Of a DNA stretch of 35,936 bases, positions 982 to 17,163 are shown one piece after another. The position numbers and the translations under genes were made by a program. Positions within the stretch are counted from its first letter, which is position 1, and each line of letters starts with the position of its first letter. This DNA comes from Anaerolineales bacterium (GTDB lineage Bacteria; Chloroflexota; Anaerolineae; Anaerolineales; Villigracilaceae). Location of the stretch: positions 1 to 35,936 of the forward strand of contig JABWAU010000027.1 of assembly GCA_013360875.1 (NCBI GenBank), read 5' to 3'. The notes below the pieces were generated by a model. It did not search any database, was not told the origin of the DNA, and saw only the letters and a program-made list of their open reading frames with translations.

Positions 982-996
982 CACGATGAAACGGTG

Positions 997-1039
997 TGCC
1001 GAGGGGGAGAATTGAACTCCCGACCAAGGGCTTATGAGT
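997..1039 (-). repeat. 3' fragment of tRNA-Met (CAT), probable att repeat at the left end of an island
   Basis: These 43 nt match 40 of 43 positions of the 3' part of the intact tRNA-Met at 17164-17236, in the same orientation. The copy runs from the 3' discriminator base through the T arm and variable loop to the anticodon CAT and base 31, where similarity stops. Two of the three differences form a compensatory pair in the T stem, so the fragment comes from a functional but slightly different tRNA. A truncated 3' copy far downstream of an intact tRNA is the usual mark of tyrosine-recombinase integration at a tRNA gene. Confidence 0.75.
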
Positions 1040-1242: not shown

Positions 1243-2835
1243 TCAAAGCGCTAAAACAACTTCAGGGTCGTCCTGATATTTCAGAAGACGCAATCCTTCG
1301 AGACGCAACGCTTCGGGGAAGAGGGTTTTGTAGATGTTGCAATTCGGCGACTTGACATCGTAGCGCCCCGTCGCACGATACGTTGCCAGCGGACAGCCGC
1401 CCGCACACCAGTATTTCCACTCGCAGGTTTTGCAGCCTTCCTTCTCTTCCACTGAGATGTTCTGAATTCCAATCTGGTCGGCGCGGATGACTGCCAGCGG
1501 GTCAGCGACATGGACATCGGTAATCGGCTTGCGAATGTGCATCTGGCATTTGGCGACCTGTCCGTGCTGATCAAAGACCAGATAGTTCTGCCCCACCCCG
1601 CACGTATGGGTGTGCGACACAGACATATTCGCCCGGTCAATGATGCCGCCGAGAAAGGGGCGGCGCGGTAGGTTTTCTTCGATGACCTTGAAGGCTGCCA
1701 ACATCCCACTGATAATTTTTTGTTCATCTAAGCGCATGTCTTCATGTGAAGCCGAGAGTTCGTTCTCGCGGTAGAAATTCAGACTGAATGGCAGGTCACG
1801 TTCCAAAATCCACGCCATGACATCGGGCAACCCGTCCGCTGTTCGGCTGCTGACCGTGATGGAGATGTTGGGCGTCAGTCCGTTGGCAAGCGCCAGGTCA
1901 ACGGCTTCGGCGACATCCGCAAAGGAGCCGCGTCCGCCCGCGTAACGGCGGTGCATATCGTGGTGCGCGCCGAGCCCGTCCAGCGAAATCATCAGCCGCA
2001 AGCCAAGCAATTTCAGCGTTTCGACCATTTCAGCAGTAAGCAATGTCCCATTGCTCAAGACAACACCCTCGAGTTCAAGTCCATGCTCTTCGGCTAAAGA
2101 TTGAGCGTAGTTGTGCAATTCCACAATCAAAGGAAAACGCAACAACGGTTCGCCACCTGCGTATTTGAGTTTCACCTGCTTAAAGCCATTGGCAAGTGCC
2201 GAGCGGAAGGTCGCGTCAATCGCGGCGCGGCCCGTTTCGGAAGTCATGTCCTCGCGGACGTGAGGCAGGTAGCAGTAGTCGCAGCGCAGGTTGCAGCGGT
2301 CCGTGAGGTGGAGCCAGGCGGTGAGGGGGGAGGAGGAGGCGGGAGAGCAGTCTTCTTCGCCCGCAGCACATGCACAGCCACAATCCTCCTCAGAAGCACA
2401 GGCGCAATCTTGATCGGCAGGCTGGAGAAAACCCAGTGAGGCAAGTTGGATGGCGATCTGAGTGCCATACTTCTTGTTAATGGAAAGCCCAGCAATTGCA
2501 TTCTCGATAGAAGCAGGCTTCTCAAACGAATGAAAAATCTGTTCTGCCGTTTGATTGAGAATCAACAAACCTTGCGAATCCCCAGCCGCATAAGCAGTAA
2601 ATTCATCTGCCAGTGGAATTCCGATGATACTGGGAGATCGTTGATAAATTCTGCCAGACAAGCGGAACGCCGAAGCGTTATAAGTTTGCGCGCCACCCGC
2701 GCAAGCGCAGTCTTCTTCTCGCACAATATTGCCATGAGCGGTAGAGCGCAGAAAAGAGACATTTTCACATGCACAGTCATCTTCAAAGTATGGCGGGCTG
2801 TTCTTTGCCCGTATCAATTCAGGAGAATTTTTCAT
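1243..2835 (-). CDS. Radical SAM/SPASM peptide maturase with PqqD-like N-terminal region and repeated DCAC motifs
   Basis: The 530-residue protein has the radical SAM cluster motif CNLRCDYC (C181, C185, C188), the SAM-binding GGEP at 227-230 and a C-terminal SPASM domain for auxiliary Fe-S clusters (C412, C430, C468, C471, C477, C481, C499). Such enzymes install C-C or thioether links in ribosomal peptides. Residues 60-140 resemble a PqqD/RRE peptide-recognition domain (LILNQTAEQIFHSF). The N-terminal part is cysteine-rich: FEDDCACE (17-24), REEDCACA (39-46), and a low-complexity linker at 142-163 with DCACA, DCGCACA and EDCS. The same FEEDDCAC motif occurs in the small peptide at 5905-6117. 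The ATG at 2835 is chosen over upstream starts because AGAGGAG lies 7 nt before it; it overlaps the STAND gene by 17 nt, so the genes are translationally coupled. The enzyme class is sure; the substrate is inferred. Confidence 0.85.
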   Translation of the reverse strand: MKNSPELIRAKNSPPYFEDDCACENVSFLRSTAHGNIVREEDCACAGGAQTYNASAFRLSGRIYQRSPSIIGIPLADEFTAYAAGDSQGLLILNQTAEQIFHSFEKPASIENAIAGLSINKKYGTQIAIQLASLGFLQPADQDCACASEEDCGCACAAGEEDCSPASSSPLTAWLHLTDRCNLRCDYCYLPHVREDMTSETGRAAIDATFRSALANGFKQVKLKYAGGEPLLRFPLIVELHNYAQSLAEEHGLELEGVVLSNGTLLTAEMVETLKLLGLRLMISLDGLGAHHDMHRRYAGGRGSFADVAEAVDLALANGLTPNISITVSSRTADGLPDVMAWILERDLPFSLNFYRENELSASHEDMRLDEQKIISGMLAAFKVIEENLPRRPFLGGIIDRANMSVSHTHTCGVGQNYLVFDQHGQVAKCQMHIRKPITDVHVADPLAVIRADQIGIQNISVEEKEGCKTCEWKYWCAGGCPLATYRATGRYDVKSPNCNIYKTLFPEALRLEGLRLLKYQDDPEVVLAL

Positions 2836-5800
2836 AGGTATACTCCTCTGAGAGAGCAAGACGTAAAGCAGAGAGGTCAAAGTCATACTCTCCAATGATT
2901 TGTTTGAACGCATCACCGACCAAACCGCTTGGGATATCCAACCCTTTCAGTATTGCAACAATTTCCCGCGCCTTTTGTTCAAGGTAATTCGGCAGTTCCG
3001 AAAAGAGACGGAAATACACAAACGAACTTAGCATGCATCGAATTCCATCCAAAACCTGCAACATGTCATGAGGCGCACTTTGCCGCGCCATCTGGATCTT
3101 CATCATTCCTTCCCGCATCTGGATTTTGGCTAAAGAAAACCAGTAGACTTCGCCTGGGCGAGGTTCTTTTTTGGCGTTGGTCAAATTAAATTCGGGCGGT
3201 ATCAATGCCCTGCAGTTTTCCAAGTTTTTTCTGGCTTGTTCAAATTCCCCCCAATCCAAATACAACTCGGCAAGGTCGTCGAGAGTATCCACCTGCTGAA
3301 AAAGCATCTTCTTCTCTTGCGCCAACTTCAACGCCTGTTCCTGGTGATCCAATGCTTGTGCAAATCTTTTTCGAGCACCTTCTTCATCGTGCAGCGATTT
3401 GAGAAGCTGCGCCCAATCCCTATTCAAGCACCCCAGCTCGTTCAGCGCCTCCCACAATCGAAGCGGTTCAACGTCCTTGAATACTTCTTTTGCCTGCTCA
3501 AAGTATTTTTCTGCTTCCGCATACGATTTTAAGGCTTGCTCTGGAGCACACTGGTTCGATGCCCAGCATCCGCCCCTCTTTCGCAAAATAAAACCAAGCG
3601 CATTACATGCCAGTCCGATTCCTCGAGGAGCATTGATCTCACGGAAAATACTCCATGCCAATTCGCAATCCCGCTGACCGCTCGTGCTGCCTGGGTTATC
3701 CAAAGCCCTGATCAGCCCGCGTGTGTTGTAACTCAATGCGATAGGATAACGTTGTCCTAATTCCAGCCGCTTGGCGAGCGCATCTTCAATTGCATCTTTT
3801 GCGCCTGGGATATCGCCTAAAAGCGCCAAAACAAAAGCCAGGTTGTTTTGGGTAAAGGCATATTCATCGGGGATCTCGGCTTTCTCATAGAATGGGAGGG
3901 CTTGGTGATAATATTCTGCTGCTTTATGATAATGACCATTGGAGCGTGCTAAATAACCAAGGCGGTCGTAAGCATAGCCTGTTAAACGATTCCAAAGCCA
4001 CCAAAGAGGCTGATTATGTCCAATTGGCGAATCGCTCAATTCTCGAAGAGCATGCTGAAAAATCTCCTCGATTTGAATTTCGGGTGCGGTCGCTGAATAG
4101 ATCAACGATTCGCCATAATATACTCGTAATGATGCCCAAAAGATTGGATGAGCCTTCGCAATATTTTCCTTTAGTTTGGTCATATTTTCTTCAGGTAGAT
4201 TCAGTACACGCGGCCGAGCACTTGCAGAAAAGTTGTCAATGAATTCAAGTTCGAAAATAGTTTCCACAACATTAATTGCTTGATCATATTGTGCCTGTCT
4301 AATCCAACGTTTTATCCACCTTGTAATGCTATCTTGGAGAAAAACTGTTTCTGCAACGCTGGAATCTTTTACACCCTTGTGGATGGAGTCGTTGCGCATA
4401 TAAACCAATACCTCATTTCGCAATTGAGTATCCAACTCTATCTCATAGCCCTTAATGGCAACATCGCTCCAGCGAACATAATTTTGATAAAAAGCCCGCA
4501 GGAAATTGCAACGCAGATCATAATAAAGGGTATTAATGATAACTTTTTCCCAAAGTGCGCGATCTTTTCTATCTGAAGACTTTTGCTTCTGATAGTAGTC
4601 TAGCAATCGTTGGAACCAATACACTCTCTCATCTTCTGGGTATGACATAAAACCATCGAACATCTCGTACAGCGCATCGTGCAGGAAGAGTTCGGTTTCG
4701 CCATACCTTTTTTTTGTCAATGTGGAACGTTCAGCATCCTCCAGCCGTTTTGCGCATTCTTCTTCAGACCACCCTTGTCCTAAAAAATGGAGCAAATCTG
4801 CTGTTAACCCTTTTCGTGCCAGCGCCAGGAAGAAGAAATGACGCCTAGCTGGATTTTCACCATCAAAGAAGGCGCGAACAATTTTCTTCCCCACTTCAGA
4901 GTCATTCGCATCCAGTTCATTTCCAAAAATATCGGGAGACCGAAGGACTAATTCAACCAGCAAAGCCACGTGAACGGGCAGGCCGCTTGTTGCCTGCCAT
5001 ATCATGGCGGCGTTCTGAGAAAGCAAATCGGCAATCGGGCGCGGCGCCTTTCGAGTGTAAACTTTTAGAAGATCTGCGGTATCAGCTTGAGTCAGCCCAG
5101 GGATGGGAATGGATTCAACTCGTCCCACGTGAATCGAGTTGATCCTTTCAATCTCATGTTTCAAGTCTTCATGGAAGCGCCCAGCCAGCAAAATGACTGC
5201 GTTTTCAGCCTCCTGGCATAAGTCCAGCAGCCACCATTTTACCGAAGGACTCTCTCTTCCTTCTCCCAGTCCAAAAGTTCGTTGTATCAAATCCTGCTCT
5301 TCGCCAATATTTTCAAGCGTGTCGAATGCAAGTACAGTTCGGTGTTTGGATGTGTATTGATTGAATTCCTCGATAAACAGTTGGTTGACTCGGGCGATTT
5401 CCGTTCGAATCAAGGCTTCGGATGAAGCGGAAAAGATGCCTTCGCGCCGATTGCTTTCAAACGAATCTTTTGCATTCCGATATTTCGAAAACCATTGACG
5501 GCGTGGGTCTAACTCCTCGATGATTGCCGATTGAAGACGCAGAATATTATGCAAATCGGTATGATAAAGGTCGAAAATGCCCGCCCAGCGCAGCGTCGAA
5601 ATGGAATAGGCGATATTTTTGGCTTCTTCCAGCAAGCGAGTCTTACCTGCCCCGCCAGAGCCATTGAAATAGATCACCCGTGTATTGCTTGCATTGAAGG
5701 CATCGCGAATAGTGCGCAAGGCAGATTCTCGATTCACGAGACTCCCCTTCAAAGCAAATGCAGGAACATTCTTACCGCTCTTGGCTGCATTCCTCACCTG

Positions 5801-5905
5801 CTCTAAAATTCTTTTTGTGGCGGGAATCCCATACTTAAAAGCATTTTCCACTGCCAGTTGAATGGCGGTTTTAACAACTTCTGTGGTTAAATCCTGGGGA
5901 AACAT
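2819..5905 (-). CDS. STAND (NB-ARC-like) ATPase with C-terminal TPR repeats, partner of the DCAC peptide
   Basis: A 1028-residue protein with a short helical N-terminal segment (1-55), Walker A GSGGAGKT (82-89), Walker B VLAFDT (191-196), a winged-helix-like region with FLHDALYEMF, and a long C-terminal half of tetratricopeptide repeats (for example YHKAAEYYHQALPFYEKA). STAND ATPases are signal-sensing switches that oligomerise on ligand binding. It is a paralogue of the protein at 6225-9269: both have a D-x-Y-H-x-x-LH motif after the P-loop and an LRxxL/YYDL-type patch. Its ATG at 5905 shares the A of the preceding peptide's TGA stop and has GGGAGGAG upstream. The TTG one codon earlier is less likely. 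In actinobacterial FxSxx-COOH loci a NB-ARC/TPR protein (FxsT) likewise accompanies a radical SAM/SPASM enzyme. The gene is visibly AT-rich around 3900-4600. Confidence 0.8.
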   Translation of the reverse strand: MFPQDLTTEVVKTAIQLAVENAFKYGIPATKRILEQVRNAAKSGKNVPAFALKGSLVNRESALRTIRDAFNASNTRVIYFNGSGGAGKTRLLEEAKNIAYSISTLRWAGIFDLYHTDLHNILRLQSAIIEELDPRRQWFSKYRNAKDSFESNRREGIFSASSEALIRTEIARVNQLFIEEFNQYTSKHRTVLAFDTLENIGEEQDLIQRTFGLGEGRESPSVKWWLLDLCQEAENAVILLAGRFHEDLKHEIERINSIHVGRVESIPIPGLTQADTADLLKVYTRKAPRPIADLLSQNAAMIWQATSGLPVHVALLVELVLRSPDIFGNELDANDSEVGKKIVRAFFDGENPARRHFFFLALARKGLTADLLHFLGQGWSEEECAKRLEDAERSTLTKKRYGETELFLHDALYEMFDGFMSYPEDERVYWFQRLLDYYQKQKSSDRKDRALWEKVIINTLYYDLRCNFLRAFYQNYVRWSDVAIKGYEIELDTQLRNEVLVYMRNDSIHKGVKDSSVAETVFLQDSITRWIKRWIRQAQYDQAINVVETIFELEFIDNFSASARPRVLNLPEENMTKLKENIAKAHPIFWASLRVYYGESLIYSATAPEIQIEEIFQHALRELSDSPIGHNQPLWWLWNRLTGYAYDRLGYLARSNGHYHKAAEYYHQALPFYEKAEIPDEYAFTQNNLAFVLALLGDIPGAKDAIEDALAKRLELGQRYPIALSYNTRGLIRALDNPGSTSGQRDCELAWSIFREINAPRGIGLACNALGFILRKRGGCWASNQCAPEQALKSYAEAEKYFEQAKEVFKDVEPLRLWEALNELGCLNRDWAQLLKSLHDEEGARKRFAQALDHQEQALKLAQEKKMLFQQVDTLDDLAELYLDWGEFEQARKNLENCRALIPPEFNLTNAKKEPRPGEVYWFSLAKIQMREGMMKIQMARQSAPHDMLQVLDGIRCMLSSFVYFRLFSELPNYLEQKAREIVAILKGLDIPSGLVGDAFKQIIGEYDFDLSALRLALSEEYTYEKFS

Positions 5906-6117
5906 CAAATTTCTCCTCCCATCATTTTGTCCGTCTGGACAAGGATCGCTTGAAATCGTAAATTGATTGGTACGGTTTTCAGTGCCTCGCCCCCTGCGTG
6001 CAAGCGCAGCCCCTCAACATGGAATTGCTTTGGGGTTCCCGCCTGACTGTGTATACATGCACAATCGTCTTCCTCGAAGCGGCGTGGTACCCCGACAAGT
6101 AGGACCATAGAGTCCAT
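5905..6117 (-). CDS. 70-residue peptide with DDCAC motif, candidate RiPP precursor
   Basis: The peptide begins MDSMVLLVGVPRR, carries FEEDDCAC at residues 14-21, and ends with a motif-free 45-residue tail (ending KMMGGEI). The two cysteines sit at 19 and 21. The acidic DCxC motif is repeated in the N-terminal half of the radical SAM protein encoded two genes downstream, which is the main reason to call it a substrate. A core near the N-terminus would mean that recognition uses the C-terminal part, unlike most leader-guided RiPPs. The ATG at 6117 has GGGAGG 4 nt upstream. The stop overlaps the next gene's start (TGATG), so the peptide and the STAND ATPase are translationally coupled. It has no signal peptide and no FxSxx C-terminus. 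Alternatives are a small regulatory or metal-binding protein. Confidence 0.65.
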   Translation of the reverse strand: MDSMVLLVGVPRRFEEDDCACIHSQAGTPKQFHVEGLRLHAGGEALKTVPINLRFQAILVQTDKMMGGEI

Positions 6118-6155: not shown

Positions 6156-6198
6156 AGAAAGAAAATAACACAGCGACTTTTGTACCAGTCGCTGTGTT
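6156..6198 (-). terminator. Intrinsic terminator of the first ATPase operon
   Basis: On the minus strand a perfect 12-bp stem (AACACAGCGACT and its complement, plus positions 6187-6198 and 6167-6178) with an 8-nt loop is followed by the T-rich run ATTTTCTTTC. It starts 27 nt after the stop of the STAND-TPR gene at 6225. This is a textbook Rho-independent terminator and separates the two units of the island. Confidence 0.85.
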
Positions 6199-6224: not shown

Positions 6225-9200
6225 TTACGTCGTTTGCCAGAGGGCGCGGTTGATGAGGAAGGTTTGGATGACAGAGCCTTGTGGATAGAGTTTTTGAATT
6301 TTATGACAGATGACTCGCATCTCGGCTGCATTGAGTTGTTTCAGGCGATCTGAAATACCATCCTTGGCTTGCCGAAAGCCTTGGTAGTCGGCAGCAAACC
6401 TGCTGTTGTAGTCCAGGGCAAGAGCATAGTTTTCGGCAGCCCTTTCAAGGAGAGATTGGACCTCTGAAGAAATTTGTTTCGAAATGCGTTGCGTTGTTTT
6501 TTTCTCATGGTCGCGTTTCAGCAGGAACTGACGAAAGGCAAGGTGCCCCCGAAGTGCAAGCAACTTTCCCTTTTGCGCCCAAACCTGAGGTTGTTTTTCC
6601 ATTTCTGCATCTGGAGGAAAAGCATCTTCAGCAGATTGGATGGCTTTCCAAATGGCATGAGCGTCGGTCACCTCCTCATCCACTTCGAGCATGTAAAACT
6701 CCAACCACGCTAAATTGACCCGCGCGTCCACGTAGCGATAAATGAGTCTCGCCTCCTTTGCCAATTCAGCCGCTTTGTTCAAGGCATCCTCGCTCTCCCG
6801 TCGCAAGCGCTTCGGATCGTCTCCTCCCTGCGGATTTTGTTTGAGCCTCCAAACCCAATCGCGGCAGGCGCAGCCAATTTCAATCAACGCTTCTACTTGA
6901 CGGGGTTTTTCACCTGACTCTGTAAAAAGTGCAGATGCCTCGCGGGCATAATCGCGCGCCCGCCGCAATAAATCAATGCGCTCTTCTTCGGGGATCAGTG
7001 GTGGAATCATACCTGCATAACGCCGTGAGGCTTCCGCCAGGGTGACCAGCGCCATACCGATGCCGCGTTTATAAGAAAAGGCGCGGAAGATGGCAAGGGC
7101 TTGCTGAGAGTTCTCGCGCGCGTCTCCATACTGTCCTTCGTGCACCTGAATCGCCGCCAGCGTATTCAAACTTAGCGCCACAGGCACTCGTGGACCTAGT
7201 TCCCTTCCTAACCGTAATGCGTCCCTTACATTGGAACGCGCATCGTGCCATTCACCCATTTCCCCTTGTGCAAAGCCCATGTCATTCATTACTGTTGCCA
7301 TTTCTTTGCGAAGATCAATTTCGCGCAATAAAACCGCCGCCTTTTGATATTCGTCAACCGCATCTTTCATAAAGCCCTGCACACGTTTGAGATAACCATG
7401 CACGCGGTGCGCCAGCGCAGCGGCTGCCTTTTTGAGCCAGAGCATTGTATCGGGAAAGAGCAGATCGGCAAACGGCTGATTGACTTCCTCGTCAAGCAAA
7501 AGGGAATACGCCTCCTGCAAATGCGATTCTGCCTCGGAATAATCGTTCCCTGCGCCGCGCATGATGTGCAGGCTGGCGGTCCAAACCTGAGCCAACGCAA
7601 ACAAAACAGGGAATTTGGAACGCCACTTTTTCTCGATGGTCTCGATGAATTTATCTCCTTCTGTCAGTCCATGTTCATAAGCAGAACGCGCCCAATCTCT
7701 TGCAATCGGGCGAACTTTCAGGCTGGCGAGAATCAGCTCGATGGAAATATCCTTCTCCAGAATTGGAGCAGGCGGTCTGCTCAGGTAGGATAATAATTCT
7801 GCCTGAAGTTGCAAGTCCATCTGCAGGTCACGCGCCATAATCGCCTCGTGAGAGAAGCGATAGTACGCGCGGAAGCCGCGCCCCAGATCATAGCGCAGGT
7901 AATAATACATCGTCTCGGCAAGGAGAGTTTGGTACTGTGTATGTACCTTCCCCAATTCCTCCATGTTGAGGCTTTCTCTGCCCTTTTCCTCCACAGGGGC
8001 ATAAAGTTCATTCAACCGCTGAGTAATACGTCGGCGTTGAATTTGATAATACTTCTTGATGGCTTCAAAGGCTGTTTTTTGCGTCTCAGCATCATATCCA
8101 TAATCGTACACATGCCGCTGGAGCAGTGCATACATCTCATCGTGAAGAAACACGCGCTGATCTTCAGGGCGAATCTTGACTACGGAAAGTTTGCGAACAT
8201 CCTTCAATCGTTGGCGCGCTTCTGCGTGTGGAATGTTGAGCAAGGCTGCCAGCATTTCTTCATCCGCTCCTTTGGGAACACGCCCCAAAGCGAGGAGGGT
8301 TTCTCCTAATTCCCCTTCCCGAAGGCGGTTGAGGAGAGCCTCTTCATAGCGTCTGCGATCCTCCTCGCTCAACCTTTCAGGCGGCACCTCCCGCAGCATC
8401 GCTTCCACATCGCCTTCGCCCGGGAAACTCAAATAGTCCACCAGCAGGGAAAGCAGGATGGGGCGGCCCTGTGAATAGTCATGGGCGCGTTTTTTTTCGT
8501 CAAGAGGAAAATTTTTCAAACGCTCAGCCAGTTGATAATCCTTTTCCTTCTCGAGCAATTTCGCCACTTCATCAAAATACTGCAGGCTTTCATCAGGGTT
8601 GAAAGAGCCGACTTCAATCTCTTCGACCGCAACCGATTTTTGTGCTTTCATTCCTTCCACGGCAGGCTTCGCTTCTTCACGCCCTGCGGTAAAAATGACC
8701 ACGTTCTCCCAGGTCGGCAAATGCTCGATAAGCCAATTCCATGACTCGGCAAGTGGAATCTCATCCGACCAGCCAGGCAAGCCATAAACCACGCGTTCGG
8801 CGGTATCCAAGGCAAGTACGATGCGCTGTTTTGCGCTCAACTGTCTAAAATCCTGCTCGAACTTCTTTATGGCATCTTCGCGCTGTTTTTCCAACTCCAC
8901 CACGTCGCCACTTAGACGGGCGCGGTTGAGCGCCTGATAAGCAGACTGATAGACTTGAAAGCTATCGAACGGCGGGGTGAGAATTTCAAAGATGGCATTC
9001 GCCAATCCAATCGGCGTGTGCAGACCAATGTGATAAAAATCCATCAGCTCTTCAGCCACGCGGCAATTTTCAATATTCCGCGCCATTTCGAGAACCTTTT
9101 GCAGCAGGCGCGTTTTACCGATCCCGCCGACGCCGTGGAGAAAGACCAGGCGGGGAGCAGGCGAGGGGTCTCGCAGGATGCGCCCAAATTTCTCCAAAAT

Positions 9201-9269
9201 ATCCTGCCGCCCAACCAGTTCGGGCGTGGCCCATAACCCCGTATATCGTTCAGTGTAGGGAGAAGTCAT
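6225..9269 (-). CDS. STAND (NB-ARC-like) ATPase with C-terminal TPR repeats
   Basis: This 1014-residue protein has Walker A GVGGIGKT at 46-53 and Walker B IVLALD at 150-155, a winged-helix-like region around FLHDEMYALLQRHVY, and a C-terminal superhelix of TPR-like repeats (MGEWHDARSNVRDALRLG, GQYGDARENSQQALAIF). It begins almost directly with the ATPase domain and has no separate N-terminal effector domain. It is a paralogue of the STAND-TPR protein at 2819-5905, sharing the DFYHIGLH-type motif. The start overlaps the stop of the gene before it by 4 nt (ATGA). It is the last gene of the first unit, ahead of the terminator at 6156-6198. No nuclease, TIR or protease effector domain is seen, so any output must come from a partner protein. 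Confidence 0.8.
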   Translation of the reverse strand: MTSPYTERYTGLWATPELVGRQDILEKFGRILRDPSPAPRLVFLHGVGGIGKTRLLQKVLEMARNIENCRVAEELMDFYHIGLHTPIGLANAIFEILTPPFDSFQVYQSAYQALNRARLSGDVVELEKQREDAIKKFEQDFRQLSAKQRIVLALDTAERVVYGLPGWSDEIPLAESWNWLIEHLPTWENVVIFTAGREEAKPAVEGMKAQKSVAVEEIEVGSFNPDESLQYFDEVAKLLEKEKDYQLAERLKNFPLDEKKRAHDYSQGRPILLSLLVDYLSFPGEGDVEAMLREVPPERLSEEDRRRYEEALLNRLREGELGETLLALGRVPKGADEEMLAALLNIPHAEARQRLKDVRKLSVVKIRPEDQRVFLHDEMYALLQRHVYDYGYDAETQKTAFEAIKKYYQIQRRRITQRLNELYAPVEEKGRESLNMEELGKVHTQYQTLLAETMYYYLRYDLGRGFRAYYRFSHEAIMARDLQMDLQLQAELLSYLSRPPAPILEKDISIELILASLKVRPIARDWARSAYEHGLTEGDKFIETIEKKWRSKFPVLFALAQVWTASLHIMRGAGNDYSEAESHLQEAYSLLLDEEVNQPFADLLFPDTMLWLKKAAAALAHRVHGYLKRVQGFMKDAVDEYQKAAVLLREIDLRKEMATVMNDMGFAQGEMGEWHDARSNVRDALRLGRELGPRVPVALSLNTLAAIQVHEGQYGDARENSQQALAIFRAFSYKRGIGMALVTLAEASRRYAGMIPPLIPEEERIDLLRRARDYAREASALFTESGEKPRQVEALIEIGCACRDWVWRLKQNPQGGDDPKRLRRESEDALNKAAELAKEARLIYRYVDARVNLAWLEFYMLEVDEEVTDAHAIWKAIQSAEDAFPPDAEMEKQPQVWAQKGKLLALRGHLAFRQFLLKRDHEKKTTQRISKQISSEVQSLLERAAENYALALDYNSRFAADYQGFRQAKDGISDRLKQLNAAEMRVICHKIQKLYPQGSVIQTFLINRALWQTT

Positions 9270-10492
9270 GACATAGCCTCCTCAGGTTTTCGCTCTGGAC
9301 AAGGCTGGGGGTCCCTGATTCCCGCTTTGGATAATGCTTTAGCATGTTTTTCTGCAAGTTCCTCAAAGAAGGGACGGAAGCGCTCCATCGAGCGTTCCTC
9401 CGCCTGTGCCTTGAAGTGACAATAAGCGGCTTTTTGCAGGCGAATCCAGGCTTCTTTATCTTTGATGGGAAAATATTGTCTCAAGATATTTTGTACAGGT
9501 TGATTCATCTCATAGCGGCCGTTTTTCCAGGACACCAGGCGGGTCTCGTTCATTTTGCGGCAAATGGCGCGGCCATCCTCTTTTTTATCGCTTTGCTTGT
9601 AGGCTTGAACCATGACAGCGGCTTCCGTCTCGCCAAATCCGTCGAGCGGGCAAAGCGCCTCGAAATATTCCCGCACCTCAGTGCGCTCATAAGCGGGGAT
9701 GACTGCAAACAAAATATCCGCCGCAATGTCCAGCGCCTCGGCACGGTCTTTGACACGGGCTAATTGCTCGGTAAAAAGCGGCCAGCCCAAGCCGATATCA
9801 TAGATTTCATTGACGGAAAGAGCAGAAGATAAACCGAATTTTTTCAATTGTTCTTTGATTTGATCTACCGTAAATTTCCCCAGCCCAAAACGGATCGCTT
9901 CGATCAAAAACGGGACTTTCCAAGGATAGGGCCGTCCCCGCCCAGTGACAATGACAAAAAAGTTGCTCAGGGTAAGAAGATTGCCCAGAAAATGCGTTTC
10001 CAATTGTTCGAGTAAAAACCAGTCGCTTTCGTAAGCCGAGTCAAGGATGAGAACGAAGCGGGAATCCACGTGGCTTTGAACATAGCGGCGGATTGAGTCA
10101 ACTTTTTCCGCTAAGTTTGGATTGGGCGGCAACTCAATTTTCAAGCTTTTTATAATCAGTTCAAGAAATTCATCCAGTGTCAATTTTTCGCCTTCGCGGA
10201 CAAAACGTTCGTTGGCTTGCGCTTTATCCCCCTCAGGGTGATAATTTTCTCCTGCACTCCACAAACTAAACAACCAGGATGTGACTCCTGTTATTTGTTT
10301 TTTGAATATTGTTCGCTGTAAATGCAGCGAGAACCAGCTCTTCCCTGCCCCGCGATCGCCGTCTATCACCACTGCCCTCACGCGCGGCTGCGATTGTTTT
10401 AGCAAATTTATTATTTGATTTATTTCCTCGTCTCGGTCAACGAATTTATCAGGAGCATAAGGAGATGATGACGTATTGGATGTCTCTGCCAT
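9266..10492 (-). CDS. STAND-type P-loop ATPase without TPR
   Basis: A 408-residue protein with Walker A GDRGAGKS (45-52), Walker B RFVLILD (145-151) and a sensor-like strand FFVIVTGRGRP after it. The C-terminal part (about 250-380) resembles the winged-helix arm that follows STAND ATPase domains. It lacks the TPR half of the larger neighbours. The start ATG at 10492 follows GGAAG in the 28-nt gap after the preceding gene, and its stop overlaps the next start (ATGA), so it is tightly coupled to the STAND-TPR ATPase at 6225-9269. The two may act as one complex. ATPase class is confident; role is unknown. Confidence 0.75.
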   Translation of the reverse strand: MAETSNTSSSPYAPDKFVDRDEEINQIINLLKQSQPRVRAVVIDGDRGAGKSWFSLHLQRTIFKKQITGVTSWLFSLWSAGENYHPEGDKAQANERFVREGEKLTLDEFLELIIKSLKIELPPNPNLAEKVDSIRRYVQSHVDSRFVLILDSAYESDWFLLEQLETHFLGNLLTLSNFFVIVTGRGRPYPWKVPFLIEAIRFGLGKFTVDQIKEQLKKFGLSSALSVNEIYDIGLGWPLFTEQLARVKDRAEALDIAADILFAVIPAYERTEVREYFEALCPLDGFGETEAAVMVQAYKQSDKKEDGRAICRKMNETRLVSWKNGRYEMNQPVQNILRQYFPIKDKEAWIRLQKAAYCHFKAQAEERSMERFRPFFEELAEKHAKALSKAGIRDPQPCPERKPEEAMS

Positions 10493-10520: not shown

Positions 10521-11711
10521 CTAGCCCTGGGCGATGGAGGCTAATTCTTTGGTGATGTGCGCCTGTTCATTGCGATACCAGGCAATCGCATTTTCTATAT
10601 CTTCGATTCGGATTTGCCTGGCGGCGGTCGGATTCCCGCCCCAGCGCATTTCATACTCGAACAGGACCTGCCTGACCAGAGTCAACGCTTCGCGTGGGAG
10701 CGGGTTAACAACGCGCGCCAGTTCGAGTTCCAGGTCCTGACCCGAGGGGAGCGCGCTGACCGCGTTGAGCGAGGCAAATTTCCCCTCGGTCGCGACGTAG
10801 ACGCGTCGGCGGAGCATCTCAGCAAGCGCGGCGGCGTCCCATTTCAAATCTATCTGGCTGAAAACTGACCATTGCTTTTCGAGCCGTTCCCGTAAGTGAG
10901 CGCGGATTTCCTGCGGTAAAAATCCTTTGACGAAGATACGCGAGGTGGTCCATTCGGGCGCTTTGGCAAAGAGTTGCACCAGCGACTGCGCCGCAAACCC
11001 AGGCGAGGAGGCGAGTTCGGGGAAGCCATCCACGCCATCGAGCAAAATGTAGACGGAGCGGAACCCCAAATCACGGGTGATCCAGTTCATTACCTTTTCG
11101 AAAACCAGGTGAATGGAAGAACTGATTGGAAGCCTTTCCCCCTCAAGATGTTTTTCGAAGATCTCACAAACCAGGTCCAATAATGACGCATCTGGTAATT
11201 GATGCAGAACATAAGACTTGTCCAACTGCGCGGCTACAATATCTGTTTGATGGCTTTCGCGAAGCGTCGCGAGATAATAATCAAGGTTGGGCACCCAGGC
11301 GGCGATAAATTGAACAAGGTGCGCTTGCAGCGGTGTTGACGCTCTTAAAAGAATCAACGGGTAATAAGTAAAAGCTAAAAACAAAGCATGAGCGGAAGAA
11401 TGAACGATTTTTTGAAGATGATCCTCGAGAGTGGAAAAATTGCTGTTGGCAAAATAATGGGGCAGATGATAATGGATGGGGAAGGGTTGGTATCCCCCGC
11501 CTCCCGTCCAGCAGGCACGCGAGGTGTAAATCCTCAAAGCTGTCTTGCCGCCGCCAGGAGGAGAGAAAATCGTGGCGGGTGTCTCGCCCCATGCAGCAGA
11601 AAAGGCATCATGACCGATTAAATAGCGATTGAGATGGGGGTCACGTGAAGCCTCATCGTATTCGAACGGATCAAACCGAAAGTCAAAATGGTTGAGCCAG
11701 ATTTTAGCCAT
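10521..11711 (-). CDS. P-loop ATPase of the cluster (AAA/STAND-like), unknown role
   Basis: The 396-residue protein starts FDFRFDPF and has Walker A SPPGGGKT (50-57) and Walker B VYILLDGVD (220-228), followed by a strand and a basic helical lid (LAEMLRRRVYVAT). The C-terminal region ends in a helical domain with the NPLPREALTLVRQVLFEYE pattern. The spacing suggests an AAA+/STAND fold of the Orc/Cdc6-like kind. It is related in plan to the degenerate protein at 13243-14718, which also has an NPF motif and the aligned but mutated P-loop. It is separated from the gene before it by a 164-nt gap carrying a promoter and an operator, so it can start a sub-transcript. Confidence 0.7.
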   Translation of the reverse strand: MAKIWLNHFDFRFDPFEYDEASRDPHLNRYLIGHDAFSAAWGETPATIFSPPGGGKTALRIYTSRACWTGGGGYQPFPIHYHLPHYFANSNFSTLEDHLQKIVHSSAHALFLAFTYYPLILLRASTPLQAHLVQFIAAWVPNLDYYLATLRESHQTDIVAAQLDKSYVLHQLPDASLLDLVCEIFEKHLEGERLPISSSIHLVFEKVMNWITRDLGFRSVYILLDGVDGFPELASSPGFAAQSLVQLFAKAPEWTTSRIFVKGFLPQEIRAHLRERLEKQWSVFSQIDLKWDAAALAEMLRRRVYVATEGKFASLNAVSALPSGQDLELELARVVNPLPREALTLVRQVLFEYEMRWGGNPTAARQIRIEDIENAIAWYRNEQAHITKELASIAQG

Positions 11712-11814
11712 AACACCTGCGAAATCGTTTCGCGCAAAACATAAATGGGGCGTCTCTGCGCCCGTTTCTCTTATTTATCCCTTTTTCAAAATGCAAAAAT
11801 GACTTCGGATACAG

Positions 11815-11842
11815 ATTGTATAGAAAACCTGCCACAAGGCAA
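11815..11842 (-). promoter_or_regulatory. Predicted internal promoter before the ATPase genes at 11711
   Basis: On the minus strand, -35 TTGCCT (11842-11837) and -10 TACAAT (11820-11815) are spaced by 16 nt. Upstream lies the 9-bp box AGGCAGGTG (11854-11846), which also precedes the promoter at 15567-15594. The leader to the ATG at 11711 is about 100 nt and contains a small GC hairpin around 11749-11764. Confidence 0.5.
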
Positions 11843-11861
11843 TTACACCTGCCTGTTATTT

Positions 11862-11880
11862 ATCTCACAAGCATCTCACA
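11862..11880 (-). promoter_or_regulatory. Operator copy 2: TGTGAGAT-GCT-TGTGAGAT direct repeat
   Basis: Two exact TGTGAGAT half-sites with an 11-bp period overlap the stop codon (11876-11878) of the winged-helix ATPase gene and lie 20 nt upstream of the -35 box for the next genes. The same 16 specified bases recur at 15605-15623. An 11-bp direct repeat is the typical footprint of OmpR/PhoB-family winged helices. Confidence 0.65.
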
Positions 11881-13246
11881 TTGCGTTTTCAAGGCGGATT
11901 TGCCCCTTACCCCGCTCGCTGATGATGTAAAGCGGCGCCACCCCGTCGCGTGTATCCCATTCTACATCTTTCCGAAGGCGGTACAACGCCGTGTCCAACG
12001 AACCTTCCCAGCCCTTAACATCCTCCCAGTTGGCGTCATCTTTACTACGCGGTTCATAGTCGAGACCTTTGTGGGCGCGGTAGTAGAGTTCCGATTTTGT
12101 GCAGGGGCGATAGCGATTCTCGTAGAGATAGCGCAGAAGTTTGTAGCCGATCCCCGCCAAAGCCGCCTCGCCCCAGCCGATGAACACGCGCCCCGTCTCG
12201 AGGTCCAGACGAAGCGGCGGCGGGGATTGACGATAGGCATCCAGCCATTCATGCTTTGTGATGGGCTTTCTTTTCGTCAGGTACGCATCCAAAATGGGAC
12301 GAGTCAACTCCAGCCAGCCCCGCGGCGAGTGACCTGCGTATTTTCTCAACCATTTCATCCATTCGGGATCTTTGCAAAGATGGGAAAGCGACAGATCATC
12401 CCGTTTTGCCGCAAGAGCAATGCGCTTTTCGGTCAGGCAGATCAACTCTTCCTCGCTCCACTTGAGTTGATATACGCTAAAGCGCCTGGTTAAAACGCCC
12501 CGAGCCTTGAGGGTGTATTCAAATTTACTGGAGGTAACAATTTTGAAGAAAAATGTGTCTTCCTCGAACAGATCGAGCGTGGAAAGGAAATTAACAAGGA
12601 AATTCTCCAGAGGTTCGGGAGAGATACGGAGTAGAGGATCCAGGTTCTCTAAAAAGACCCAAATGCCATCCAGTCCATGCGCTTTGACTGCGCTGGTGAG
12701 ATGCGAGAGAATGGTAGACGGCAGAAAATCGCGAGGGAACAACTCGCGCGACGGTTCTGTCAGGAGGCGGGTGATCACTGCAAGTCCCTCCGCGTCCGCT
12801 CCGTCGGCAAGGCGGCTGAGATGATATTGACGGTCGCCGTGCAAATATGCTTGCACGAACCAGTGCATAAAATCTTTTGCCCAAACGGGTGCGTTCGAGT
12901 GAGTGGCTGGTTCACAAGCAATCAATTTCAGGAAAGCGAACGACAGAGAGCCCATCGCTTGCGAGATGAACAGCTCCGCCGCCTGACCGCTGGGAAGGAC
13001 ACCATCAGGGATGGCAAGGCGCCAGGAAACGACAAGCAGTTTTGGCGTTTGTTGTGCGACGTACTCTTTCAAGTAAAGTTCGAGTGCGGATTTGCCCGAT
13101 CCTTCCTCACCCATGACCAAAACCGAGCGCGGCTCGACCATCTGCCCGAACAGGCGCGGCGGCAGATACGCTTGTGCCAGCCAGGCGGCTTCTGTCTCGG
13201 CGCGAAGCGAGCCAAAGTAACGGGAGAGGTTGGGAGAGGAAGTCAT
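11876..13246 (-). CDS. P-loop ATPase with C-terminal OmpR/PhoB-like winged helix, probable regulator of the cluster
   Basis: A 456-residue protein with Walker A GEEGSGKS (46-53) and a Walker B-like strand IWVFLEN (195-201). The last 110 residues resemble the trans_reg_C winged helix: a leading beta part (LDLETGRVFIGWG), the helix pair GYKLLRYLYENRYRPCTKSE, the recognition-helix region LDTALYRLRKDVEWD and the final wing LYIISERGKGQIRL. This implies an ATP-controlled DNA-binding protein. Exact TGTGAGAT direct repeats with an 11-bp period lie before the first gene of the operon and right at the end of this gene, which fits a tandem-binding OmpR/PhoB-type domain. The start overlaps the preceding stop (ATGA). 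The winged-helix call is by pattern and is fairly secure; autoregulation is inferred. Confidence 0.75.
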   Translation of the reverse strand: MTSSPNLSRYFGSLRAETEAAWLAQAYLPPRLFGQMVEPRSVLVMGEEGSGKSALELYLKEYVAQQTPKLLVVSWRLAIPDGVLPSGQAAELFISQAMGSLSFAFLKLIACEPATHSNAPVWAKDFMHWFVQAYLHGDRQYHLSRLADGADAEGLAVITRLLTEPSRELFPRDFLPSTILSHLTSAVKAHGLDGIWVFLENLDPLLRISPEPLENFLVNFLSTLDLFEEDTFFFKIVTSSKFEYTLKARGVLTRRFSVYQLKWSEEELICLTEKRIALAAKRDDLSLSHLCKDPEWMKWLRKYAGHSPRGWLELTRPILDAYLTKRKPITKHEWLDAYRQSPPPLRLDLETGRVFIGWGEAALAGIGYKLLRYLYENRYRPCTKSELYYRAHKGLDYEPRSKDDANWEDVKGWEGSLDTALYRLRKDVEWDTRDGVAPLYIISERGKGQIRLENAM

Positions 13247-14718
13247 GCGGTCTTAAGTATAGTCTCTAAATCCTCGACGTATAAATACTTCTCAGGCACT
13301 CCGTTCTTTATCCTGCGCTCGCAATGGTGTTGGAATAGGCGATTGCCCAGGGTTAACATGCGGGCGAGGGAGTTATGGGAGGCAGAGATAAGTCTTTCTG
13401 TTGTTTCTTCTCTCGTTGCGAAATAGCCTATGGCAGGGTCGGAGCCAAACAGAGCTTGGAAGTCAATGACTTGCCCTAATTCTTTTTGAAAGATCTTGTC
13501 CATTGCTGATTCAAATTGAGCATTCAGGGATGCTCTTAGATTTTCGTTGGACCAACTTAATTGAACTTCTGGAAGTGAAAGCGCTATAGGAATTGTGGAT
13601 GAAAAAAAGGCTTTGACGACAATTCCGTTCAAAAATAATGTCGAGATTAATGGATTGAATTGCTCCATCCACCATACTTTGGCAGGCAGGGGAACTTCGT
13701 CCAAATTGACAATGAGAAAAGTGGAAATGAGTTCAGGCGGTCGGGTTTTCAGCCACGACAGTAGGACGGTGTTTTGGGGTACCTGCGCCGAAGAAAATCC
13801 GCTTTGGAAGCGTTCGATTTTTTGAAGAAGCAGGCTGCCTGCTTTGTCTGGTGTCAATCCTTCACGTTGCAGCAAATTTGTCACTGTTTTGGCTGACCCG
13901 AAAGCCCAACAGAGCGGATCAAGCACAGCTTCCTGTTCTGCAGGCAGAAGATCAAGCATGGCGTCGGGCGAGAGACAAAGGATGTCGAGCCATGTTTGTG
14001 CCGCTGAGCGTGCAAGAGTCAAAAGCGGGGATTCGATAGTTAACGACTGATTGAACGACACCAAAATGGGTAAAACCTGCAAACCAGGTTTTACCGTTTC
14101 GTTGCCTTCAACATCCTTCTTTTTCAGGGGTAAAGATTCCACACATAATTGAAGTGCCAGCGCCCTGGCGTCTTGCGGCGATGGACATTGGGCAAGTTTG
14201 GGGAAATTGTCTGCAAAATCATTCCATTTGTTGGGGGGCAGGAAACCTTCTGGATAAAATGGAAAATCTTTCAAATTCATCTTGCCAAAGGGGTTTGAAA
14301 CAAACGAGAACTCTTTTAGCCAATTCGTAATTTTTGGATCGTCCCCGCCTTTGTGTAACAGCCATTTTGCATTATAGCCGCCAAGTGGAACACTAGACAA
14401 TTGCGGAAACAGCATCTTGATTTCAGTGTCCCGTAACAGACGGCGTCTATTGCTATTGGCAAAAATCTTTCTCTGCAACTCATATTCAGGGATCAATGAC
14501 AGATCAACCCTCCGCGAGAGTTTCTTCAGTGCGCCAATAATCAAATCCTTGGCATCGGCATCGAAATCATCCCATAATTTCACAAGCGCTTCAATGAGAT
14601 GAAGAACATGGCTCTGTTCGATTGGTAGCGAATCAAGAATTTTCGACAGCGCGTCAATACTCTCCGGGTGTTCCGTAAAAAACCGACCATATAACTTTTT
14701 TACATCCACGTTATTCAT
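13243..14718 (-). CDS. Degenerate ATPase-like protein (P-loop lost)
   Basis: This 491-residue protein has an NPF motif (142-144) followed by an acidic-aromatic stretch like the start of the ATPase at 10521-11711 (DPF). Where that protein has PPGGGKTAL, this one reads SPQDARAL (about 180-187), so the glycine-rich loop, lysine and threonine are gone. A Walker B-like strand FLIVNLDEV (334-342) is kept. It therefore looks like an inactive ATPase-fold subunit, perhaps a scaffold or sensor. Residues 1-100 are helical and may form a separate adaptor domain. ATG at 14718 directly follows the stop of the membrane protein, with AGGAGGGG as ribosome site; its stop overlaps the next start. The P-loop alignment was done by eye and needs a structure comparison. 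Confidence 0.6.
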   Translation of the reverse strand: MNNVDVKKLYGRFFTEHPESIDALSKILDSLPIEQSHVLHLIEALVKLWDDFDADAKDLIIGALKKLSRRVDLSLIPEYELQRKIFANSNRRRLLRDTEIKMLFPQLSSVPLGGYNAKWLLHKGGDDPKITNWLKEFSFVSNPFGKMNLKDFPFYPEGFLPPNKWNDFADNFPKLAQCPSPQDARALALQLCVESLPLKKKDVEGNETVKPGLQVLPILVSFNQSLTIESPLLTLARSAAQTWLDILCLSPDAMLDLLPAEQEAVLDPLCWAFGSAKTVTNLLQREGLTPDKAGSLLLQKIERFQSGFSSAQVPQNTVLLSWLKTRPPELISTFLIVNLDEVPLPAKVWWMEQFNPLISTLFLNGIVVKAFFSSTIPIALSLPEVQLSWSNENLRASLNAQFESAMDKIFQKELGQVIDFQALFGSDPAIGYFATREETTERLISASHNSLARMLTLGNRLFQHHCERRIKNGVPEKYLYVEDLETILKTA

Positions 14719-15531
14719 CTACCCCTCCTGCCTCAGTTGTTCGCCTACTGCCCTCATAAATTCACGTTCAGAATCGGCAAATGAGATTCGCATTTGTTGG
14801 AGTTCTCTCATTAAGTCACTTTCAAGATCGTAACTTCGGATTTGTTCCTCCAAAGTAACAAATGTACGAAGGCGTTCCAAATAGGGTAGGGAAGCCAGAG
14901 AGTTCAGTTCATTCCGTATCTGGATAATTAACTCTTTTCTCAAATTCAGTGCAGTGTCTATTGCATTTGCAATCCAGGTAACCAGCGCCCCCAAAATGGA
15001 AATCTCCAAAAATGACGCTGCGGCCAGGCTTAAAAATGAAAATAGATGAGACACCACAGCGATTTCAACAGGTTGGGACTGAATTGATACTGGTTTTCCA
15101 TCTACAAGCATCGAAACGTCAATGAGATGTTTTTGATGGTATTCTTTAGAAAGATAAGGGCGCACATACATGCTCTGCTCAAAAAACATTTGATCGCTGG
15201 TAAATTGAAAACGTGGTGTGAGCTCCGATCCCTTGGCATCTACAAACAATAGCGTGGAAGATTGCAGGAAAATTTCATAGGTGTGAGGCTCAGTTATGTC
15301 GCCTGTGTAGGAAAAGGATAATATAAGAGGGTACGATGCGTCATTTTTAGAACTGAGGATTTTGACAGGGTAATGCAAAGAAATTTGGATGTCCCCATCA
15401 CGAAAAACAACTTCGGTAGTATAGTTTGTCTTTTGCCAGGCGTTATACACGCGTACGCCAAATAAGATCCCCACTATAACAACGACAAAAACATACAAGT
15501 CTATCTTAATGCGGTAGGAAGCGATACCCAT
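14719..15531 (-). CDS. Two-helix membrane protein with extracytoplasmic domain and cytoplasmic coiled coil; candidate sensor
   Basis: The 270-residue protein has a membrane segment at about 10-27 (LYVFVVVIVGILFG), a beta-rich extracytoplasmic domain of about 130 residues, a second long membrane segment at about 163-190 (FLSLAAASFLEISILGALV) and a charged helical tail (195-270) with coiled-coil character. No catalytic motif is seen. As the first gene of the ATPase operon it could pass an envelope signal to the ATPases. ATG at 15531 has GGGAGAAG just upstream, and the stop abuts the next start. Topology is a confident reading of hydrophobicity; the sensor role is inferred. Confidence 0.65.
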   Translation of the reverse strand: MGIASYRIKIDLYVFVVVIVGILFGVRVYNAWQKTNYTTEVVFRDGDIQISLHYPVKILSSKNDASYPLILSFSYTGDITEPHTYEIFLQSSTLLFVDAKGSELTPRFQFTSDQMFFEQSMYVRPYLSKEYHQKHLIDVSMLVDGKPVSIQSQPVEIAVVSHLFSFLSLAAASFLEISILGALVTWIANAIDTALNLRKELIIQIRNELNSLASLPYLERLRTFVTLEEQIRSYDLESDLMRELQQMRISFADSEREFMRAVGEQLRQEG

Positions 15532-15566
15532 CTTTCTTCTCCCAAAGCAGGCGGCTGTTTTGTTTC

Positions 15567-15594
15567 AGTATAAGCCATTTGCCCCAAAAGTCAA
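15567..15594 (-). promoter_or_regulatory. Main promoter of the ATPase operon
   Basis: On the minus strand, -35 TTGACT (15594-15589) and -10 TATACT (15572-15567), each 5/6 to consensus, are separated by 16 nt. Transcription would begin near 15560 and give a leader of about 30 nt before the ATG at 15531. The box AGGCAGGTG (15604-15596) adjoins the -35 and recurs at the internal promoter at 11815-11842. Confidence 0.65.
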
Positions 15595-15604
15595 TCACCT
15601 GCCT

Positions 15605-15623
15605 TGTGAGATATTTGTGAGAT
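15605..15623 (+). promoter_or_regulatory. Operator copy 1: TGTGAGAT-ATT-TGTGAGAT direct repeat
   Basis: Two exact TGTGAGAT half-sites, 11 bp apart start to start, lie 10 nt upstream of the -35 of the main promoter and touch its AGGCAGGTG box. The repeat is in the opposite orientation, relative to the promoter, from copy 2 at 11862-11880. The 11-bp period points to an OmpR/PhoB-like winged helix, and such a domain is encoded in this operon. Confidence 0.65.
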
Positions 15624-15826
15624 GGGTGCTGGGCATTCGACAGAAGTGTGAAATGGTATTTTTCCCTGAAATCAATACAATAAGGTCAAAAATCAAGCCC
15701 ACTTCACCAGAAAGGAGCGATTATCGAAAATTCAAAGATCGTTGTTGCGTGTCAGTACAAGTGAAAGGAGAGCCTATCGAACGATAAATCAGGATCAATC
15801 CCATTTCCCTTCCAGTAAAATAATAA

Positions 15827-15856
15827 GACCGCGCCGACCTGGGGTCGGCGCAGGTC
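15827..15856 (-). terminator. GC-rich stem-loop, possible terminator
   Basis: A 9-bp perfect stem GCGCCGACC (15831-15839 with 15843-15851) with a 3-nt loop extends by GACC/GGTC across one bulge. On the minus strand it is followed by TTATTATTTT. No gene on that strand clearly ends here, so it may terminate a short untranslated RNA or insulate the divergent promoters. Confidence 0.45.
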
Positions 15857-15891
15857 GTTTAATTGAACTGGACTTTCGCCAATTTTGTTTA

Positions 15892-15958
15892 AGCGCCATA
15901 TTTTGTGGTTTTTGAAAAATCAAAACACCATATATGGCGGTCGTTTCCTCAAAAATTT
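15892..15958 (-). repeat. Right copy of the imperfect inverted repeat
   Basis: Read on the minus strand, AAATTTTTGA, GACCG, ATATATG and TATGGCGCT occur in the same order as at 1058-1104 on the plus strand. A 12-bp direct match, ATATATGGCGGT, is also shared (15930-15941 and 1112-1123). The region has an internal imperfect palindrome around CGCCATAT. Confidence 0.3.
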
Positions 15959-16880: not shown

Positions 16881-16933
16881 GCCCACCGAGTCAGGGACGC
16901 GGTACACAGCGTAACCCTCCTGCCTCGAAAAGC

Positions 16934-17160: not shown

Positions 17161-17163
17161 CAG

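What the first reader, a model, noticed from the sequence alone, without database searches (positions are those of the whole stretch)
1243..6117. Peptide - STAND/TPR - radical SAM unit with a shared DCAC motif: candidate new RiPP system
A 70-residue peptide with FEEDDCAC is coupled by overlapping codons to a STAND-TPR ATPase and a radical SAM/SPASM protein. The enzyme's own N-terminal half repeats EDDCAC/EEDCACA several times and includes a PqqD-like region. Established parallel: actinobacterial FxSxx-COOH loci pair a small peptide, a radical SAM/SPASM enzyme (FxsB) and a NB-ARC/TPR protein (FxsT). Here the peptide lacks the FxSxx end and the motif is unlike it. Inference: a Chloroflexota counterpart where a cysteine-acidic motif is modified and the STAND protein senses or uses the product.
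Basis: partly seen in the sequence, partly recalled or inferred. Interest (0 to 1): 0.85.

Follow-up and report, generated by a model that had tools for sequence, protein, structure and literature searches.

The report
Radical SAM enzyme with cysteine-rich N-terminus
A bacterial peptide-modifying enzyme that sits beside an NLR-like sensor protein appears to carry its own cysteine-acid substrate tag at its front end, and the small 'peptide gene' reported next to it looks like the leftover front end of an older copy of the same enzyme.

Summary
The three ORFs and the shared DCAC motif are real, and the STAND-TPR/radical SAM pairing is conserved. The 70-aa "peptide" is not a conserved RiPP precursor: it is 61% identical over 56 residues to the N-terminus of a full-length radical SAM protein in L037, with matching upstream DNA. 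It is best read as the 5' stub of an older enzyme gene, cut by STAND1 plus a new enzyme N-terminus. No similar stand-alone DCxC ORF was found in the relatives' fetched flanks.

The motif belongs to the enzyme: 48 of 51 dereplicated relatives (Chloroflexota, Nostoc) carry 1-5 "DC" units in N-terminal tracts; in the window protein these flank an RRE-like domain on a CteB/PapB-like SPASM core and are predicted flexible. STAND-TPR is directly upstream in 36 of 37 and 13 of 13 assessable loci (many near-duplicates). TIR, trypsin, CHAT or EAD domains occur upstream in 10 of 12 loci scanned, none recognised in the window. Window cores are 80-93% identical to nine relatives whose N-termini and STANDs match at 10-31%.

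Best reading (about 0.5): a conflict-system maturase with its substrate fused in cis, modifying its own Cys-Asp tail; the STAND senses or deploys the product. New variant of the FxSxx-type kind.

The parts
1243..2835 (-). Radical SAM/SPASM enzyme, 530 aa: DC-rich N-terminal tail (res. 1-51), RRE-like domain (63-133), second DC-rich linker (142-166), radical SAM core and SPASM
2819..5905 (-). STAND1: AAA_16-like NTPase with TPRs, 1028 aa, partner of the enzyme
   Evidence: no close homologue in 152 family genomes, best 31% in 298 class genomes
5905..6117 (-). 70-aa ORF: 5' stub of an older radical SAM gene, keeps DCAC
6167..6198 (-). Terminator-like hairpin between STAND2 and the stub, also present in L037 ahead of its intact enzyme gene
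   Evidence: the scan alone is not above its shuffle mean of 0.8; the support is conservation
6225..9269 (-). STAND2: AAA_16 NTPase with TPRs, 1014 aa, orthologue-like to the STAND of L037 (62%)
9266..10492 (-). AAA_16-like ATPase (cluster 7), operon member
10521..11711 (-). ATPase weakly like anti-phage DS41_1/Sll1717 (cluster 8)
   Evidence: 69.7 bits against cut-off 370
11876..13246 (-). ATPase weakly like anti-phage DS41_1/Sll1717 (cluster 13)
   Evidence: 62.4 bits against cut-off 370
13243..14718 (-). Cluster 14 protein; its relative L036_0 has an N-terminal TIR_2 domain, no Pfam match here
14719..15531 (-). First gene of the run, apparent membrane segments, no Pfam match

Best explanation
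The unit is a two-gene module, a STAND-TPR sensor plus a radical SAM/SPASM maturase, of an NLR-like bacterial conflict system whose RiPP-like substrate is fused to the enzyme. The N-terminal tail (a short hydrophobic, leader-like stretch, then 1-5 Asp-Cys units, in some members repeated again before the catalytic core) is held beside an internal RRE-like domain and is modified by the enzyme itself, in cis or between subunits, most likely at sulfur (thioether links, by analogy with CteB and PapB). The STAND-TPR protein senses, gates or deploys the modified tail. SHOWN by sequence: the fusion and its conservation, the pairing, effector-type neighbours in relatives, co-variation of N-terminus with STAND. 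PREDICTED by models: flexible tails, RRE order, CteB-like fold. INFERRED: self-modification, thioether chemistry, immune role. In the window, STAND1 with a new DC-rich enzyme N-terminus cuts or replaces an older copy of the enzyme gene; the severed 5' end remains as the 70-aa ORF.
For: DC in 48 of 51 dereplicated N-termini, copy number 1-5 and spacing variable, including four EGQCDCS units in L052; all 13 further members have it. No other called ORF in the loci has such a tract: 2 of 611 match the pattern, each a lone CDC, against 39 of 40 enzymes. All 10 tail Cys of the window enzyme lie in the two segments with pLDDT under 50. RRE order 63-133; best fold and profile match 5wgg, a thioether maturase structure (Z 32.2; E 1.4e-37); best NCBIfam model PapB, below cut-off. 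STAND-TPR directly upstream in 36 of 37 and 13 of 13. TIR, trypsin/Trypco1/EAD9, CHAT, EAD7 upstream in 10 of 12 loci scanned. N-terminus follows STAND beyond the core: partial r 0.62, 0 of 2000 permutations.
Against: No chemistry is shown. PapB failed on the reversed Asp-before-Cys order (PMC9413430, passages), and here acids directly precede 127 of 199 tract Cys but follow only 58; L026 and L065 have no acid within 7 residues after any tract Cys. L052 and L065 have short N-termini without room for the RRE. L066 has the motif without a STAND neighbour. Low pLDDT can reflect a thin alignment. N-terminus and STAND are adjacent, so linkage alone could make them co-vary. The window itself has no recognised effector.
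Confidence: 0.5

Rival explanations
1. The DC-rich tail binds a metal or an extra Fe-S cluster, or is a redox/thiol sensor gating the enzyme; it is not a substrate.
For: CxC and CxxC spacings occur in many members and are typical of metal sites (recalled); most tracts have at least two Cys.
Against: Cys number (2-12) and spacing vary widely, units are duplicated or moved to the linker, three-DCR forms lack any CxC (L020, L024), and the region is not confidently folded. The invariant radical SAM and SPASM cysteines are separate.
Confidence: 0.2
2. The enzyme modifies another molecule (the STAND protein, an effector, or an unlinked peptide) and the tail is a regulatory or docking element.
For: The genes are paired and N-terminus co-varies with STAND, as expected for docking too. 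RRE domains normally bind leaders in trans (PMC12710340, passages).
Against: No other called ORF in the loci carries a comparable tract, and no small DCxC ORF similar to the stub was found in the fetched flanks. A docking element would not obviously need Asp-Cys units in variable number.
Confidence: 0.2
3. The 70-aa ORF is a functional trans substrate: a detached tag served by the same enzyme.
For: It keeps a start codon, ribosome site, an aligned TATAAT, DCAC and overlap with STAND1. It differs from L037 about as much as STAND2 does (61% and 62%), and third codon positions differ most often (14/10/22 in 56 codons).
Against: In 152 family genomes it occurs in the window genome only; the two other matches are N-termini of full-length enzymes. 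It ends partway through the RRE region, after a 1-nt gap in the alignment to L036, as a remnant would. The promoter scan lists no promoter at the TATAAT.
Confidence: 0.1

Closest known systems
FxSxx-COOH peptide-processing modules coupled to AP-ATPase-TPR proteins (Kaur et al. 2020, PMC7159879, passages seen)
   Same: Radical SAM-SPASM enzyme genetically coupled to a STAND-type NTPase with TPRs, in conflict-system neighbourhoods with TIR or trypsin components.
   Different: There the precursor is a separate small protein cleaved by a metallopeptidase; here the motif is fused to the enzyme. FxsB, FxSxx_TPR and HaaT models score far below their cut-offs.
PapB/PapA ranthipeptides (PMC9413430, passages)
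   Same: Closest NCBIfam model to the enzyme (150.6 bits); chemistry on Cys plus Asp/Glu.
   Different: Below cut-off (340); separate PapA precursor with six CX3D/E motifs; the order here is mostly Asp-Cys.
SCIFF maturase CteB (PDB 5wgg/5why; the name is recalled)
   Same: Best structural and profile match, covering the RRE-like part and core.
   Different: About 19% identity in the structural alignment; SCIFF precursors are separate peptides (recalled).
Borosins (recalled; PMC12710340 passages only cite them)
   Same: Logic of a substrate fused to its modifying enzyme, modified autocatalytically.
   Different: Different enzyme (N-methyltransferase) and chemistry; core at the C-terminus (recalled).
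STAND/EAD conflict systems with trypsin-Trypco1 and TIR (PMC7159879, passages)
   Same: Nostoc relatives encode Trypco1, trypsin-EAD9 and EAD9-STAND upstream.
   Different: No enzyme-fused Cys-Asp tract is mentioned in the passages I saw; PMC8195603 has no 'radical SAM'.

Membership tests
FxSxx-COOH system | Separate small precursor ending FxSxx | tested here: not met
   Window ORF ends KMMGGEI and is an enzyme-N-terminus homologue
FxSxx-COOH system | FxsB-family maturase | tested here: not met
   TIGR04269 64.9 bits, cut-off 370
FxSxx-COOH system | FxsT-type TPR NTPase | tested here: not met
   NF040586 27.8 bits, cut-off 300; HaaT NF041717 43.8, cut-off 1125; general STAND-TPR architecture shared
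PapB ranthipeptide maturase | NCBIfam PapB model at cut-off | tested here: not met
   150.6 bits, cut-off 340
PapB ranthipeptide maturase | Cys-to-Asp/Glu thioether product | not testable with these tools
   Needs mass spectrometry
Radical SAM/SPASM peptide maturase | CxxxCxxC and the auxiliary-cluster cysteines | tested here: met
   C181/185/188 and C412, C430, C468, C471, C477, C481, C499 invariant in 50 sequences; the SPASM assignment of the seven is recalled; Radical_SAM 60.7 bits
[quoted passage not shown]
   Model: strands 63-93, helices 95-102, 110-115, 121-133; alignment to 5wgg from residue 68. Prediction only
RiPP recognition element | Sequence match to Pfam PqqD | tested here: not met
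   Not among matches up to E 0.1
STAND conflict systems (Kaur et al.) | STAND NTPase with C-terminal repeats | tested here: met
   AAA_16 in STAND1 is 28.0 bits, below the gathering score 32.6
STAND conflict systems (Kaur et al.) | Effector or effector-associated domains in the operon | tested here: inconclusive
   Found in 10 of 12 related loci scanned, not in the window
Enzyme-fused RiPP precursor (borosin-like logic) | Substrate-like tract in the same chain as the enzyme | tested here: met
   Fusion and conservation. That it is a substrate is inferred
Enzyme-fused RiPP precursor (borosin-like logic) | Self-modification of the tract | not testable with these tools
   Needs expression and mass spectrometry

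The most novel reading that the evidence does not exclude
A single-chain radical SAM RiPP system: an NLR-associated enzyme that cross-links its own disordered Cys-Asp tail, the modified tail being the ligand or weapon of the STAND-TPR sensor, with [STAND + tail] acting as an exchangeable recognition cassette on a constant catalytic core. The window records one such exchange and its severed tag.
Probability: 0.35. Interest if true: 0.85.

Novelty: new variant of a known kind. Interest (0 to 1): 0.58.

Why it matters
If true, a radical SAM enzyme modifies itself rather than a separate precursor, and genome mining that looks for small precursor ORFs would miss the whole family. It would tie peptide-modifying chemistry to NLR-like conflict systems outside actinobacteria, in organisms that include Nostoc strains, and one purified protein and a mass spectrometer could test it. 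It also explains a misleading 'peptide gene' as the scar of a module exchange.

Tried and rejected
Rejected: the 70-aa ORF as founder of a peptide family. FxsB or PapB membership. Recent copying of the core as the reason for its high identity: in the eight window pairs tested, core identity is 0.80-0.93 but fourfold sites are 0.21-0.54 identical, which points to purifying selection.

Led nowhere: PADLOC gave only low-scoring matches (viperin-type radical SAM, TPR, PDC-S20, mad8). No relative of the Nostoc enzyme in PLSDB plasmids at E 1e-40. STAND1 has no homologue at E 1e-60 in the other 151 family genomes; the best of seven relatives in 298 class genomes is 31% identical, and within their short flanks one (L112) is followed by an enzyme with two DCACPDG units and one (L108) shows a short match to the enzyme. 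Literature: no paper held for radical SAM + SPASM + NB-ARC or for the fused-precursor phrases tried; listings and the passages read showed no enzyme-fused Cys-Asp tract. Most subscription journals are not held and only passages of four papers were read, so this does not prove absence from print. No structural control was run for the hydrophobic stretch before the motif (a loose test). Fold searches: TigE, SuiB and SkfB rank below 5wgg.

Rows dropped before counts: one search used 50 and one search used 52 of the 69 enzymes; near-duplicates, L015 and L029 (frame broken) and L034/L035 (start unclear) were left out. One search reduced 69 to 51, with L001 (the window again) removed first. One search counted 39 loci: L042 and L046 not assessable (contig edge), L066 a miss; L073 and L075 hold only enzyme fragments. 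One search used 47 loci: L047 and L052 (STAND split into two ORFs) and L102 were left out, and only loci with a STAND upstream could enter. share contigs (L007/L040, L008/L043, L009/L046, L012/L064, L014/L066). L077-L089 are distant radical SAM proteins, not counted as members. Fourteen of the 39 loci are closely related cyanobacteria.
Full report
WHAT IS THERE. On the minus strand lie, in order, STAND2 (9269-6225), the 70-aa ORF (6117-5905), STAND1 (5905-2819) and a 530-aa radical SAM protein (2835-1243). Pfam gives AAA_16 and TPR for both STAND proteins (AAA_16 below its gathering score in STAND1) and Radical_SAM for the enzyme. The best NCBIfam model for the enzyme is PapB (150.6 bits, cut-off 340); FxsB scores 64.9 (cut-off 370).

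THE PEPTIDE IS A GENE STUB. The 70-aa ORF matches the N-terminus of full-length radical SAM proteins in L037 (61% over 56 residues, E 6e-19) and L036 (58% over 45). STAND2 is 62% identical to the STAND preceding the enzyme in L037, and the window and L037 share the upstream order, clusters 14-13-8-7-STAND. At DNA level the likeness to L037 runs through the end of STAND2, a hairpin (6198-6167), a TATAAT hexamer and the ribosome site into the ORF. The hairpin is listed as terminator-like, but the scan finds as many in shuffles, and it lists no promoter at the TATAAT, so the support is conservation. Aligned to L036, the ORF shows a 1-nt gap near codon 58, then meets the ribosome site of STAND1. 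So STAND1 with a new enzyme N-terminus either was inserted into the older enzyme gene or replaced its remainder; I cannot tell which. In 152 family genomes the ORF matches only itself and two enzyme N-termini, whose coordinates fit L036 and L037. Scans for small DCxC ORFs gave 14 rows, one being the window's own, and 2 rows in further loci; by eye none of the others resembles it. 33 of the 72 loci had under 1.6 kb upstream of the enzyme, 38 had 5 kb or more. Whether the stub still works is open.

THE MOTIF BELONGS TO THE ENZYME. Relatives occur in 44 of 400 Chloroflexota genomes at E 1e-40, own genome included, and in 54 loci of named genomes, of which 39 hold a near-full enzyme of this family, 14 of them cyanobacterial; the rest are fragments or distant radical SAM proteins. 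After dereplication 48 of 51 N-termini contain DC; L065 has GQCACAG, and L015 and L029 have disrupted frames there. Thirteen further, more distant members all have it, some as GGCDGDCAC. Those with DC have 1-5 units and 2-12 Cys: DCDCAC, GQCDCDGGDCAC, three spaced DCR units, four GQCDCS units. Total DC is 113 against a maximum of 37 in 500 shuffles. Of 611 called ORFs of at least 90 aa, two non-enzyme ORFs match the pattern, each a lone CDC, against 39 of 40 enzymes.

STRUCTURE. AlphaFold2 on 50 aligned sequences gave pLDDT 82.5 and pTM 0.84. Residues 1-51 and 142-166 are under 50 and hold all ten N-terminal cysteines. Residues 63-133 form strands then three helices, the RRE order given in PMC12710340 (passages). 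The best structural match is 5wgg (Z 32.2, 401 residues, 6.2 A), the SCIFF maturase CteB (name recalled), also best by profile (E 1.4e-37). A Nostoc model (pLDDT 84.8) repeats this and has a short strand at residues 11-13 before the motif, at modest confidence (block means 62-63). A hydrophobic stretch precedes the motif in 50 of 51 N-termini by a loose test without control. Reading it as a leader is inference. L052 and L065 have too short an N-terminus for the RRE yet keep the tract.

NEIGHBOURHOOD. A STAND-TPR gene is directly upstream in 36 of 37 assessable loci (L066 is the miss; L042 and L046 begin at the contig edge) and is the nearest same-strand upstream ORF in 13 of 13 further loci. 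Pfam scans of upstream genes in 12 loci found TIR_2 (L036, L038, L041, L045, L064), Trypco1 with Trypsin_2-EAD9 and EAD9-STAND (L053; EAD9 also in L061), Trypsin_2 (L069), CHAT (L067), EAD7 (L050) and SLFN_AlbA_2 (L045); none in L043 or L068. Such domains mark the conflict systems of Kaur et al. (PMC7159879, passages). The window has the 14-13-8-7 module, two members weakly like an anti-phage family, and no recognised effector.

EVOLUTION. The window enzyme and those of nine relatives (L036-L041, L043-L045) are 80-93% identical in the core but 10-31% in the N-terminus, and their STANDs 22-26%. Fourfold sites in eight of these pairs are 21-54% identical, so constraint on the protein, not recent copying, keeps the core. 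N-terminal similarity follows STAND similarity beyond what the core predicts: partial r 0.62 in 47 loci and 0.51 in 31 dereplicated loci, 0 of 2000 permutations each. Linkage of adjacent genes is an alternative cause.

MECHANISM. The most economical reading is a maturase with its substrate built in: repeat-like Cys-Asp units in variable number, predicted flexible, beside an RRE, a thioether-maturase fold and no separate precursor found. PapB links Cys to Asp or Glu that follows it with 0-6 residues between, and failed on the reversed order (PMC9413430, passages). Here Asp or Glu directly precedes 127 of 199 tract Cys and directly follows 58; L026 and L065 have no acid within 7 residues after. 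The exact bond therefore cannot be named, and PapB chemistry may not apply. The STAND role is inferred from pairing, co-variation and the known logic of NLR-like proteins.

VERDICT. Observation confirmed; interpretation partly supported; a new variant of the radical SAM plus STAND-TPR peptide systems, with the substrate-like tract fused to the enzyme.

Noticed in passing
window 996-1039 and 17163-17235: A 44-nt direct repeat (93%) of the 3' half of tRNA-Met, anticodon loop included, lies 16.2 kb from the tRNA gene and brackets the whole operon, as in a genomic island integrated at a tRNA. No integrase was recognised among six ORFs of 15560-16948 scanned.
   Followed up: partly
window 10521-13246: Two neighbouring ATPases weakly match NCBIfam anti-phage protein DS41_1 and the Sll1717 ATPases, below cut-off; relatives stand in the same order in L036, L037, L040, L044 and L094-L097.
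   Followed up: partly
G000 contig C48 15673-21839 (L002-L004): Three further radical SAM matches (21-28% identity to the query) lie within about 6 kb on one strand of the same genome; possibly another peptide-modification cluster.
   Followed up: no
L112 4628-5173: A STAND1-like gene is followed by an enzyme N-terminus with the unit DCACPDG twice.
   Followed up: no
L066 8665-10134 (same contig as L014): Enzyme with two GDCACDSP units and no STAND-TPR gene upstream.
   Followed up: no
window 18580-18701: Two adjacent 61-nt direct repeats, 82% alike, outside the operon.
   Followed up: no
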